Source of the DNA: a bacterium
Lineage (GTDB): Bacteria; Bacillota; Clostridia; Christensenellales; CAG-138
Assembly (NCBI GenBank): GCA_022778545.1
Contig: JALFDW010000033.1
Location: 1 to 64,000, forward strand
Direction of reading: 5' to 3'
Length of the DNA stretch: 64,000 bases
The position numbers and the translations under genes are program-made. This document shows, piece by piece, positions 185 to 10,307 of the stretch (positions are counted from its first letter, which is position 1; the number at the start of each line of letters is the position of its first letter). Under the pieces are notes generated by a model, which was not told the origin of the DNA, searched no databases, and saw only the letters and a list, made by a program, of their open reading frames with translations.

Positions 185-3766
<3,582 letters not shown>

Positions 3767-3897
3767 TCAAAACCGCAGCATATTAAAGGAAACAGAAGGC
3801 CATAATCCGTGTAACATTATAGTATTTCTGCCTTGTGAAGTCAACCGCGCGCGCGCATTAATGCGGGGTTTTTGTCTCCAATCTTAACAATATTAAC

Positions 3898-4277
3898 ATG
3901 GAGCGGGGGAGTGCGCCCCATCCCCCTTGCCCCTTCCCCGGGGAAGAGGGACATGATGCTGAAGGCGCGGCGCACCTTCACGGCGTGGTTGAATCATGGT
4001 GCCGTTGTTTGGGTTCGCGGGACGTCCAGAGGCCGTCCCCTACATCCGTCCTCTTGGATGGAATGTGCATGTAGGGGGCGGCGTCCCCGACGCCCCGCCT
4101 TGTACAGACGGCATTTCGGTTATGCCGCGGGACGTCCGGAGGACTTCCCCTGCATTCGTCCTCTTGGATGGAATGTGCATGTAGGGGGCGGCGTCCCCGA
4201 CGCCCCGCCTTGTACAGACGGCATTTCGGTTATGCCGCGGGACGTCCGGAGGCCGTCCCCTACATCCGTCCTCTCGG
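3898..4277. repeat. Mosaic repeat block with 110-bp tandem duplication of modules A+B
   Basis: Unit starting CGGGACGTCC at 4018 recurs at 4128 and, partially, at 4238. Confidence 0.85.
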
Positions 4278-4567
4278 AAGTTATACACACCGGAGAATAT
4301 GCACAAAAGGGCTTTATGTCTTATGCATGAGACACTTTCCCATTTTTCACCAGTGAAAAAGACGATCCTCCGCGCAAAGTATGTACAAATTGAAAAATTT
4401 TTCATGGAAAGAGCATTTTGCGATTGCATTTTCGTGTTAAGTTGTTGTATATTAGTCTTAATAAAAAACGATTGTCTTCCTGCATTGCAATATGATTCAT
4501 TTTTCTCATCTCGAATGGCTTATTGTCGTGCAGGCAATGATAAAATAAATCTAAAGGAGCAACGAAC

Positions 4568-5377
4568 ATGCCTGCTAAAATGAAAATCCGCTCCGCGTAT
4601 GCAACACTCCCAAGCGCGGAAAAGAAAGTCGCTGACTTTATCCTTGAAAACTCAGACCGCGCCACGCGTATGGTGATCAACGAGATCGCAGAGGCCGCCG
4701 GCGTGAGCGTTCCTTCCGTAACCCGCCTTGCGCGCAAGCTCGGTTACAGCGGCTTCCTGGACTTCCGCGTTGCCCTCGCCTCCGGCACGGCCACGATGGA
4801 AACGAAGAAGGACACCGCCATCCTCCCGGAGGACAGCGACGAGACCGTCATCGAAAAGACTTACAGCGCCACCATCAACGCGCTGGAGGATACCTATAAG
4901 GCGCTCGACAAGGAAGCGATGATCGCCCTGGCCCACGCCATCGAAACCGCGGACCGCGTATTCCTCTGCGGCAACGCAAGCTCCGCCCTGCTCGCGGAGG
5001 ACGTTATGAGCCAGCTCCACACGCTCGGCATCGAAGCCTACGTCATCACCGACCCCACGGCCATGAGCGTTTACAAGCGCCGCTTCAAGCGGGGCGATGT
5101 TTTCATCGGCATCTCCCGCACGGGCCGCAACAAGGTGCTCAACGAGGCGCTCCGGGCCGCGAAGATGGGCTGCGCGACCTGCGCATTCTTCTGCAACTAC
5201 ATCAACGCACCCGCCGCCCAGATCGCAGACTTCTTCTTCTGCACCTCCCGGCTTGATGATTTCAAGACCATCATGGGCCGCGAAACAAACAGCACGATGA
5301 TCTCCCTGCTGAACCTGCTCGTGATCCTCGTTGCCCGTTACATCAAGCAGAAGAAAGTGCCGGACAGCATCAAATAA
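4568..5377 (+). CDS. MurR/RpiR family transcriptional regulator (HTH + SIS domain)
   Basis: N-terminal RpiR HTH (SAEKKVADFILEN..INEIAEAAGVSVPSVTRLARKLGYSGFLDFR) and SIS domain. Confidence 0.93.
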   Translation: MPAKMKIRSAYATLPSAEKKVADFILENSDRATRMVINEIAEAAGVSVPSVTRLARKLGYSGFLDFRVALASGTATMETKKDTAILPEDSDETVIEKTYSATINALEDTYKALDKEAMIALAHAIETADRVFLCGNASSALLAEDVMSQLHTLGIEAYVITDPTAMSVYKRRFKRGDVFIGISRTGRNKVLNEALRAAKMGCATCAFFCNYINAPAAQIADFFFCTSRLDDFKTIMGRETNSTMISLLNLLVILVARYIKQKKVPDSIK

Positions 5378-5380
5378 AGC

Positions 5381-6118
5381 ATGATCATCACCGCGGATTA
5401 CCATACCCACACGAATTACAGTCACGGCAAGGGCACACCGGAAGAGAATGTCCTTGCCGCGATCGAAAAGGGCCTCCGCCGCATCGCCATCAGCGAGCAT
5501 GCGGGGGCTCATCTTTTTTATGGCGTGCGCGGAAACCATCTTCTGCGCCTGCGCCGCGAGGTGGACGCGCTTGCCCGGCGCTATGCAAACGAGATCGAAG
5601 TGCTGATGGGCCTTGAATGCAACCTCATCGCCGCCGGAAAATGCGACGCGCCGCTGCCGGGCACAGGTATCCCGGAAGGCGCGGATCTTGCCCCGTTTGA
5701 CGTGCTGCTGCTGGGCTACCACAAGGGCGTCTGGCCGGAAGATGCCGCAGCGCGGGGCGCATTCCGTGAATCCTTCGGCCTCGGCCATGCCGACCCTGTG
5801 AAGGTGGCCGAAGCGCTGCTTCAAACAGCGGAGCGTTACAAAATCGGGATGCTTTCCCACCCCTGCGAATATGTGCAGGCGGACATCCCGACACTTGCGC
5901 GCGGCGCAAAGGAGCTTGGCATCCTGCTCGAGATCAACGCGAGCCATGTGAGCATGACGCCCGCGCAGATCCGCGAGGCCGCATCCTATGGCGCAAAGTT
6001 CGTCATCGGGAGCGACGCGCACACCCCTGCGCGCGTGGGAGATTTTGAAAAAGCCATCCGGGCGGCGGAAGAAGCGCAGGTGGAAACGCGCATTGTCAAC
6101 GCGGAAAATGCGGATTGA
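5381..6118 (+). CDS. PHP domain phosphoesterase (histidinol-phosphatase-like)
   Basis: DYHTHTNYSHGKGTPEENV..ISEHAG metal-binding motifs, C-terminal GSDAHTPARVG. Confidence 0.88.
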   Translation: MIITADYHTHTNYSHGKGTPEENVLAAIEKGLRRIAISEHAGAHLFYGVRGNHLLRLRREVDALARRYANEIEVLMGLECNLIAAGKCDAPLPGTGIPEGADLAPFDVLLLGYHKGVWPEDAAARGAFRESFGLGHADPVKVAEALLQTAERYKIGMLSHPCEYVQADIPTLARGAKELGILLEINASHVSMTPAQIREAASYGAKFVIGSDAHTPARVGDFEKAIRAAEEAQVETRIVNAENAD

Positions 6119-7349: not shown

Positions 7350-8080
7350 GCCCTCCTCTCAAGCACCGCGGCAGCAAGTGTATTCTCTTCATCCATGGGG
7401 ATATAATCCTGCTGCAGCACGGCGCGCTCTTCCTGCGTCATGCCGAGCATCGCTTCGGCGAAAGCCAGCACATCCGCGCAGTACGCTTCCACATGGGCAC
7501 GGTTTCGCTCCGTCAGCTCCGGATAGGCGGGGATGTCCGCGTTCAGCACATCGTTCATGCGCCCGATCAACCATGTGATGTCATCTTCATCCACGTCGTC
7601 CTCTTCCGCTGCGCGGAACAGGTTGAGCCGCGCTTCCTCAAAGCGTTCATACTGGCTGTAAAGCAGCACCATCTGGGAAGCTTCGTAATGCTCCTGCCCG
7701 AAAAGATCCTTTTTGTCCATCATTTCATACAGGGCGCCGAACTGCTCCGACGCATACAGCGTTTCGATCTCCGCTTCAATCTTCGTTTCGTTCAGGCGAT
7801 TGCCCGCCTTGTGTGCCGCATCCGTTAGGAAAAATGCAGCGGTTACGCCAAGGAACGCCAGCGCAAACAGCGCCGCTTCCGCAATCAAAACACGGTTGAG
7901 CACCCGGTTTGCCGCCCGGAGGCGCAAAAGGGGCGCTTCCTCGCTGCTGACGCGGGCATATTCCGCCTCAGCCGTCTGTTTTTCCTGCTTCCAGCGCAGC
8001 CCGCGGGGGTTTGCCGTGCCGCAATACGGGCATTTTTCTTCCTTTGCGCGGTAATTCGCGCCGCAGTTTTTGCACTTCAT
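7340..8080 (-). CDS. Zinc-ribbon domain membrane protein
   Basis: CKNCGANYRAKEEKCPYCG zinc ribbon, one TM segment, overlapping neighbours. Confidence 0.8.
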   Translation of the reverse strand: MKCKNCGANYRAKEEKCPYCGTANPRGLRWKQEKQTAEAEYARVSSEEAPLLRLRAANRVLNRVLIAEAALFALAFLGVTAAFFLTDAAHKAGNRLNETKIEAEIETLYASEQFGALYEMMDKKDLFGQEHYEASQMVLLYSQYERFEEARLNLFRAAEEDDVDEDDITWLIGRMNDVLNADIPAYPELTERNRAHVEAYCADVLAFAEAMLGMTQEERAVLQQDYIPMDEENTLAAAVLERRAWE

Positions 8081-8820
8081 TGTTTTCCCTCTGCAAGGCG
8101 CGCGGCTGCACGTTCCGCGAGCGCCTGATAGTCCGTTTCTTTCTCCGCGTCAAGGGCGATGCCCTCCGCAATTTCATCCTCCGTCAAAAGGAGCGTTTCC
8201 GTCAAAAGCGCACGCGCCCGGCGCTCCAGCTCTGCGACGGCATCCTGCTCCCCATAAACGAAACCGGCTTCCGAAAGCGCGCTGCATTCCCGCAGCAGGG
8301 AGAACAGGTGTTTGAGATCATAATTGAGGAGATCCGCCCCTTCCGGGAAGCCTGCCACGAATTCCGCGGTTTCCGCGCAGCTCTCTTCCTCGTTTCCGAG
8401 CGTCTCAAACAGCGCGCCGACCGTCCTGTATTTCTCATATGCGCCGCTGTAAACGCGTTCCGTTTGTTCAAGCGCGGCAGGGAGGGCATCATATTCGCCG
8501 TTTTGCCAAAGCTGCTCGAGCTTTTCGAGCGCGGCATCCTGCCTGCGCAGCGCAGCCTCCGGCGCCAGTTTTGAATAAAGGAACGCCGCAAGAAAGGCTA
8601 CAGCCGCCACAACCACGATGACCAGCATGGCACAAAGAAGAATGCGCTTTGCCCGTGCCGCCACACGCTCCGGAACATGCAGCAGCGCGGCGATCTTCGC
8701 ATAGATGCCGCTGATCTCCTGCCGGTGTTTTTCCTCTGCGATCGCTTCGTTTTCATAGCCGCAGTAAGGGCAAAGCAGCGCGTTTTCCGGAAGCTCCGCG
8801 CCGCAGTTTGAACAGGTCAT
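8077..8820 (-). CDS. Zinc-ribbon domain membrane protein
   Basis: CSNCGAELPENALLCPYCGYEN zinc ribbon, one TM segment; 4-bp overlap with next gene. Confidence 0.8.
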   Translation of the reverse strand: MTCSNCGAELPENALLCPYCGYENEAIAEEKHRQEISGIYAKIAALLHVPERVAARAKRILLCAMLVIVVVAAVAFLAAFLYSKLAPEAALRRQDAALEKLEQLWQNGEYDALPAALEQTERVYSGAYEKYRTVGALFETLGNEEESCAETAEFVAGFPEGADLLNYDLKHLFSLLRECSALSEAGFVYGEQDAVAELERRARALLTETLLLTEDEIAEGIALDAEKETDYQALAERAAARLAEGKQ

Positions 8821-8967: not shown

Positions 8968-9170
8968 CCATCCACACCCGCCTGTGGAATCCACAGGGAC
9001 AATTTGTGGAAACTGTTGGCAGTGGGGAGACTGTGGAAAACAGGCGTGTTTTTCCCGGGGATATCCACACCGTTCCCAACAGCCAAAACCGTTTCCGTTT
9101 CTCGGAAAAAGCGGGTTTTCCACAGCCCCAACACCCCCTACTGCTACTACGACAAAGTATTATAATAAAA
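8968..9170. other. oriC: Probable chromosomal replication origin (oriC) with DnaA-box cluster and unwinding element
   Basis: TTTTCCACA on minus (9032-9040) and plus (9116-9124); near-boxes at 8968, 8983, 8987, 9005, 9061; GC-rich GCCCCAACACCCC then CTA-CTG-CTA-CTA trio-like repeat (9138-9149) and AT-rich TATTATAATAAAA; directly upstream of dnaN. Confidence 0.82.
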
Positions 9171-9197: not shown

Positions 9198-10307
9198 ATG
9201 CGCATCCATATCAACACCCAGGAACTTAACGCCGGCATATCGACCGTAATCAAGGCGCTTTCCACCCGCACCACGGTCAGCATCCTCGAAGGCATCTATC
9301 TCGAAGCCGCAAACGGGTGGCTGCTCCTGCGCTGCACGGACCTTTCCCTTCAGATCGAGACCAACGTTGCCGCGACCGTGCAGGAGGAAGGCGCGATCGT
9401 CCTTCCCGGCAGGCTCTTTTCCGAGATGGTACGCCGCCTGCCCGGCGAAACCACGTTCATTGACGTGAAGAAGGGCACCGCCACCATCGAAAGCGGCAGT
9501 TTCAAGACCACCCTGCAGGGCGAGGATGCGGATGGTTTCCATACGATGTCCACCGTTACGCGGGAGCACATCATCAAAATGAAATGCGACGCGCTCAAGA
9601 ACATGATCCGCCAGTGCATCTTTGCCGCGGCGCAGGATGACACGAAGCCGATCCTCGCAGGCGCGCTGCTCGAGCAGCAGGAGGGCGACCTTTCGCTCGT
9701 GGCGCTCGATGGATACCGCCTTGCCATGCGCCGCGAACGGGTGCCCGGCGGCATGCTCGCGGACAGGAGCGCCGTCATCCCCGCGCGCTCGCTGCTTGAG
9801 ATCAGCAAGATCCTGCCGGACACGGACGAAACGTTCGACATGATCTTCTCTAAAACCCATGTGATGATTGACCTTTCCCACACGAATATCACCGCGCGGC
9901 TGATGGATGGCGAATTCATCAAATACAAGCAGATCTTGCCGGATGGGCACAAGACGCGCGTGCGTGTGAACCGGCATGAGCTGATGGGCGGCATCGACCG
10001 CGTTGCGCTGATGGCGCGGGAGGGGAAGAGCAACCTCATCAAATTCACCTTTACGGCGGACAAACTGACCATTGCCGCCAACAGCGAGCTGGGCCGCAGC
10101 CATGAGGAGATCCCCGTGGATGTGATGGGGGAGGACATCGAGATCGCCTTCAATGCGAAATACTTCACGGATGTGCTGCGCGTGCTGGACGATGACGAGA
10201 TCTACCTTGACATGAACAACAACATCAGCCCCTGCGTCGTGCGCCCCATTCAGGGCAACGCGTATTATTACCTGATCCTGCCGGTGCGCCTGTTCTCCGG
10301 CATGTGA
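9198..10307 (+). CDS. dnaN: DNA polymerase III subunit beta (sliding clamp)
   Basis: 369 aa; MRIHINTQELNAGISTVIKALSTRTTVSILEGI... and C-terminal YYYLILPVRL. Confidence 0.96.
   Translation: MRIHINTQELNAGISTVIKALSTRTTVSILEGIYLEAANGWLLLRCTDLSLQIETNVAATVQEEGAIVLPGRLFSEMVRRLPGETTFIDVKKGTATIESGSFKTTLQGEDADGFHTMSTVTREHIIKMKCDALKNMIRQCIFAAAQDDTKPILAGALLEQQEGDLSLVALDGYRLAMRRERVPGGMLADRSAVIPARSLLEISKILPDTDETFDMIFSKTHVMIDLSHTNITARLMDGEFIKYKQILPDGHKTRVRVNRHELMGGIDRVALMAREGKSNLIKFTFTADKLTIAANSELGRSHEEIPVDVMGEDIEIAFNAKYFTDVLRVLDDDEIYLDMNNNISPCVVRPIQGNAYYYLILPVRLFSGM

What the first reader, a model, noticed from the sequence alone, without database searches (positions are those of the whole stretch)
8968..9170. 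Probable oriC with DnaA-box / GC-cluster / DnaA-trio unwinding element directly upstream of dnaN
Seen: two perfect TTTTCCACA boxes (9032-9040 minus strand; 9116-9124 plus strand) and at least five near-boxes in 160 bp. The last box is followed by a GC-rich spacer (GCCCCAACACCCC), then CTA-CTG-CTA-CTA (complement 3'-GAT repeats) and AT-rich TATTATAATAAAA. Known: this order matches the basal unwinding system (DnaA-box, GC cluster, DnaA-trios) described at Bacillus-type origins. Inference: this is the initiation site.
Basis: partly seen in the sequence, partly recalled or inferred. Interest (0 to 1): 0.7.

Follow-up and report, generated by a model that had tools for sequence, protein, structure and literature searches.

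The report
Replication origin beside dnaN, without dnaA
This is almost certainly the place where this gut bacterium starts copying its chromosome; it is built like the Bacillus and Clostridioides origin, but the initiator gene dnaA, normally next door, has moved away while the origin stayed with dnaN.

Summary
Seven DnaA-box-like sites lie in 157 bp (8968-9124). The last box (9116) is followed 13 bp later by four DnaA-trios and an AT-rich stretch, 82 bp before the dnaN start codon. It is by far the best such module in the 64 kb, and a loose version of the pattern has only one other match in the 2.1-Mb draft. GC skew changes sign at it, and it is conserved in all five genomes of the genus.

It lies on another contig with rpmH and a small box cluster, but no unwinding module and no skew switch. 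In 56 family genomes dnaA and dnaN are separated in 17, by at least six changes on a DnaN tree. A module scoring above every shuffle remains at dnaN in 14 of the 17 and was never found beside dnaA. In seven separated genomes checked, skew turns minus to plus at dnaN every time, at dnaA never. The origin tracks dnaN; dnaA came loose. The parts are known; the arrangement is known in cyanobacteria, and I found no report of it for Firmicutes.

The parts
8968..9069 (.). Upstream DnaA-box cluster: 8968-8976 + CCATCCACA, 8983-8991 - GATTCCACA, 8987-8995 + GAATCCACA, 9005-9013 - GTTTCCACA, 9032-9040 - TTTTCCACA, 9061-9069 + ATATCCACA
   Evidence: box cores conserved in five genus genomes
9116..9124 (+). 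DnaA box TTTTCCACA that anchors the unwinding module
   Evidence: invariant in the genus
9125..9133 (+). GCCCCAACA, place of a second tandem box, decayed here (5 mismatches)
   Evidence: relatives carry TTATCCGCA (G023) or GTTTCCACA (G044) here; inference
9134..9137 (+). CCCC, the GC cluster proper
9138..9149 (-). Four DnaA-trios on the - strand (3'-GAT GAC GAT GAT-5'; + strand CTACTGCTACTA); the + strand carries three TnnT motifs (candidate DnaD element)
   Evidence: rule of PMC8287927; TnnT rule of PMC10201434
9158..9169 (.). AT-rich run TATTATAATAAA, candidate DNA unwinding element
   Evidence: sequence; inference
9198..10307 (+). dnaN, DNA polymerase III beta clamp, 369 aa
7340..8820 (-). 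Two genes directly upstream of the origin where dnaA would be expected; the nearer one (8077-8820) has a zinc ribbon
185..6118 (.). Block of pyruvate:ferredoxin oxidoreductase, RpiR-type regulator and PHP-type phosphatase (names from the translations, not profile-tested); downstream of dnaN in relatives, upstream and inverted here

Best explanation
This is the chromosomal origin, of the basal-unwinding-system (BUS) kind, equivalent to the dnaA-dnaN intergenic half (oriC2/incC) of the Bacillus and Clostridioides bipartite origin. Proposed working, inferred from those models: DnaA fills the upstream boxes and the box at 9116, is guided across the CCCC cluster onto the - strand trios, and its filament stretches and opens the AT-rich run before dnaN. 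A DnaD-like protein could then bind the exposed TnnT strand and bring in helicase. Shown here: the motifs, their conservation, the skew switch, and the fact that dnaA with rpmH and its own box cluster lies elsewhere. Inferred: unwinding activity, and that rearrangement detached dnaA (with the oriC1-like cluster) from the unwinding module, which stayed with dnaN.
For: Ordered box, spacer and trios scoring above all 560 shuffles and nearly unique in the draft genome. Conserved in five genus genomes, in four of which the strict pattern matches exactly once each, at dnaN. 49 of 56 family dnaN upstream regions score above all shuffles. Skew optimum at 10.0 kb of this contig. In seven genomes with separated dnaA the skew turns minus to plus at dnaN in 7 of 7 and at dnaA in 0 of 7, background 11% of positions. 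dnaA on C23 has no box-trio module in its flanks. In G057 dnaN and dnaA share a contig 133 kb apart and the skew V is next to dnaN. A DnaD-type protein is present.
Against: No closed genome and no marker-frequency or binding data. Only 9 kb lies left of the site, and skew there is mixed. The G057 skew V alone is not significant in a permutation test (p 0.28). G008 shows the skew switch at dnaN without any module there. All genomes are drafts, so some separations could be assembly errors.
Confidence: 0.93

Rival explanations
1. The cluster is a relic of an old origin, or a DnaA-titration or dnaN-regulating site, and the active origin now lies at dnaA in the rpmH-dnaA region of contig C23.
For: C23 has five box-like sites between rpmH and dnaA. 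In most Firmicutes the origin flanks dnaA (PMC7561715).
Against: No box-trio module there (best score 5.2 against 9.3) and skew is negative on both sides of dnaA. The dnaN-side module is still conserved in related genomes.
Confidence: 0.04
2. dnaA and dnaN are really neighbours here too, and the separation is an artefact of a chimeric metagenome assembly; the origin itself is real and of the ordinary bipartite kind.
For: Draft assembly of 45 contigs; dnaA and dnaN are adjacent in G039 and G054 of the same genus.
Against: dnaA is followed by 5 kb of other genes and dnaN preceded by 9 kb of others, so two independent misjoins would be needed. G021 also lacks dnaA in the 2.7 kb before dnaN. G057 has both genes on one contig 133 kb apart.
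Confidence: 0.08
3. The trio-like CTA repeats are chance or promoter sequence of dnaN (TATAAT at 9161-9166), and only the boxes matter.
For: TATAAT occurs at 9161-9166 in the AT-rich stretch, so the element may double as a -10 box (sequence). In G039 only two consecutive trios fit the rule.
Against: No sigma-70 promoter pair was found. The ordered score exceeds 560 of 560 shuffles, and 49 of 56 family members exceed them too.
Confidence: 0.03

Closest known systems
Bacillus subtilis incC basal unwinding system (PMC6669920; PMC8287927)
   Same: Box, GC-rich spacer, 3'-GAT-5' type trios and AT-rich run in the same order before dnaN; spacer of 13 bp, the commonest length
   Different: Here the second tandem box is decayed, fewer trios fit the rule, and dnaA is not adjacent
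[quoted passage not shown]
   Same: This site matches oriC2: box cluster, CTACTA-type trios, then AT-rich DNA before dnaN; a separate rpmH-dnaA box cluster exists
   Different: The two halves are not joined by dnaA; they lie on different contigs, with at least 14 kb of other genes between dnaA and dnaN if they lie on one arm
Synechococcus oriC next to dnaN with TTTTCCACA boxes (PMC2275245)
   Same: Origin next to dnaN rather than dnaA; TTTTCCACA box variant
   Different: Different phylum; here the split is recent within the genus and recurrent within the family, with dnaA-adjacent sister species available

Membership tests
BUS-type oriC (rule of PMC8287927) | DnaA box with at most 2 mismatches | tested here: met
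   TTTTCCACA at 9116; one difference from TTATCCACA
BUS-type oriC (rule of PMC8287927) | Spacer of 16 bp or less between box and first trio | tested here: met
   13 bp, the commonest length
BUS-type oriC (rule of PMC8287927) | At least three consecutive NAN trios | tested here: met
   Four: GAT GAC GAT GAT. In G039 only two in a row
BUS-type oriC (rule of PMC8287927) | DnaA-dependent strand opening that needs boxes and trios | not testable with these tools
   Needs purified DnaA and strand-separation assay
Chromosomal oriC | GC-skew switch from minus to plus at the site | tested here: met
   Optimum at 10.0 kb, p 0.008 by block permutation; only 9 kb on the left
Chromosomal oriC | Cluster of DnaA boxes beyond chance | tested here: met
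   Densest cluster of the window, above all 12 shuffles
Chromosomal oriC | Replication starts there (marker frequency, footprint) | not testable with these tools
   No reads or cultures available
Firmicutes bipartite origin (oriC1-dnaA-oriC2) | rpmH-dnaA-dnaN gene order with box clusters on both sides of dnaA | tested here: not met
   rpmH-dnaA on C23, dnaN on C11; no boxes in the 520 bp after dnaA. dnaA and dnaN are adjacent in G039 of the same genus
Firmicutes bipartite origin (oriC1-dnaA-oriC2) | Both box clusters needed for opening | not testable with these tools
   Shown in vitro for C. difficile (PMC7561715); needs an assay here

The most novel reading that the evidence does not exclude
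The oriC1-like cluster left with dnaA still helps the dnaN-side origin from a distance, by looping or as a DnaA-recharging or titration site, so that a bipartite origin has been stretched over many kilobases instead of reduced to one part.
Probability: 0.12. Interest if true: 0.6.

Novelty: new variant of a known kind. Interest (0 to 1): 0.4.

Why it matters
It gives a natural experiment on what an origin needs. In one bacterial family dnaA has come away from the origin about six times or more, mostly with the box-trio module staying beside dnaN, and close relatives in one genus show both states. This makes two questions testable: whether the dnaA-side half of a bipartite origin is dispensable, and whether dnaA must be close to its origin. 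It also warns that placing the origin at dnaA would probably be wrong for about a third of the genomes analysed in this family.

Tried and rejected
The genome-contig scan with DnaN gave only two loci, too few; the family search replaced it. A strict consecutive-trio scan missed several relatives with CGA interruptions and was replaced by a 12-base weighted score with shuffles; the weights are my own and were set by hand after seeing the first scan. The permutation test of the skew V in G057 alone was not significant, so that claim rests on the set of seven genomes. No origin module could be found for G008 near dnaN, in the first 80 kb of its dnaA contig, or by the strict genome pattern. The idea that C23 at dnaA is a second origin was rejected because skew is negative on both sides and there is no module. 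Literature searches for dnaN-side origins in Firmicutes and for Christensenellales origins returned nothing relevant.

Full report
Observation. The two exact TTTTCCACA boxes, five near-boxes, the 13-bp spacer, the CTA-type repeats and the AT-rich run are all present at the stated places. The gene that follows is dnaN. Single boxes are common in this genome (62 exact TTTTCCACA), so an individual box is no evidence; the cluster and the ordered module are. Four sites within one mismatch in 200 bp is the densest cluster in the window and exceeds all 12 shuffles. The box-plus-trio score of 9.3 exceeds all 560 shuffled upstream regions (max 6.3), and the next unrelated place in the window scores 5.6. 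A loose genome-wide pattern matches here and at one other place.

Refined anatomy. The box at 9116 is followed by GCCCCAACA and CCCC. Relatives have a box-like 9-mer at the first of these (G023 TTATCCGCA, G044 GTTTCCACA), so the spacer is best read as a worn second tandem box plus a 4-base GC cluster. That fits the layout described for the basal unwinding system, where 13 bp is the commonest spacer (PMC8287927). The + strand of the trios has three TnnT motifs, two of which suffice for DnaD binding in B. subtilis (PMC10201434), and the genome has a DnaD-type protein with three DnaB_2 domains.

Conservation. In the alignment of all five genus genomes the invariant islands include the box cores, TTTTCCACAG, parts of the spacer and the start of the trios. 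In the other four genus genomes the pattern TTWTCCACA-N8-18-CTAYTRC matches exactly once each, always at dnaN. In the family 49 of 56 dnaN upstream regions score above every shuffle.

Skew. On this contig the best two-slope split is at 10.0 kb (left -0.015, right +0.036; block-permutation p 0.008). The opposite skew at 1-3.5 kb belongs to the POR gene, whose coding strand is also C-rich in G048, where the gene sits on the other side of dnaN.

dnaA is elsewhere. The only DnaA C-terminal domain found in the genome is on contig C23, preceded by rpmH (read from the sequence) and five box-like sites, and followed by an MmgE/PrpD gene and others, with no boxes in the 520 bp after the domain. Skew is negative on both sides of dnaA, which fits a place in the left arm with the origin further right. 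In G039 and G054 of the same genus dnaA and dnaN are neighbours. The block POR-RpiR-PHP lies downstream of dnaN in the four relatives but upstream and inverted in the window, so inversions around the origin probably separated dnaA from it (inference).

Recurrence. Combining the positions of dnaN and dnaA, in 17 of 56 family genomes dnaN has about 2.7 kb or more of upstream contig and no dnaA there; 35 are adjacent and 4 undecided. On a DnaN tree the separated label needs 7 changes, at least 6 forced by well-supported branches. A single-gene tree and draft assemblies make the exact number soft. Among the 17, the module at dnaN scores above every shuffle in 14, is weaker in G055 and G016, and is absent in G008; the dnaA flanks in the same genomes never score above 5.8. 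With flanks of up to 20 kb, skew turns minus to plus at dnaN in all 7 separated genomes tested and at dnaA in none of the 7; about 11% of positions on these contigs do so. G057 carries both genes on one contig 133 kb apart, with the V next to dnaN.

Mechanism. By analogy with B. subtilis and C. difficile: DnaA on the boxes is passed across the GC cluster to the trios on the - strand and opens the AT-rich run; helicase loading follows. Only the sequence layout is shown here. In C. difficile the rpmH-dnaA half was needed for opening in vitro (PMC7561715). In this genome that half has come away, and in most other separated genomes the region before dnaA is down to 0-2 boxes, so I think the dnaN half is sufficient here (about 80%), with residual action at a distance as the less likely option.

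Taxonomy.

Novelty. All the parts are known, and origins beside dnaN rather than dnaA are known in Synechococcus (PMC2275245). The literature describes rnpA-rpmH-dnaA-dnaN as the conserved origin context of Firmicutes (PMC7561715). Repeated loss of that linkage with the unwinding module mostly staying at dnaN was not found in the papers searched, a limited open-access set.

Noticed in passing
L042:9450-9554 (own genome, C23): Four same-strand DnaA boxes (ATATCCACA, TTATCCACA, TTGTCCACA, TTTTCCACA) in an intergenic stretch 9.3 kb left of dnaA, beside an N-acetylmuramoyl-L-alanine amidase gene; could be a DnaA-titration or regulatory cluster.
   Followed up: partly
L093:3927 (G057:C30:83927): Six-box DnaA-box cluster about 41 kb to the right of the dnaN-side origin of a relative.
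   Followed up: no
L021 / L101 (G008:C47, about 76.6 kb): Relative with separated dnaA in which skew switches at dnaN but no boxes or trios are found there; its origin module may have moved recently or diverged.
   Followed up: partly
window 185-6118: POR / RpiR / PHP block lies upstream of dnaN and inverted, while the four genus relatives have it downstream: sign of inversion across the origin.
   Followed up: partly
whole genome G000: TTTTCCACA occurs 62 times against 9 for the reversed pattern, so this 9-mer is over-represented far from the origin; cause (codon usage or real boxes) not tested.
   Followed up: no
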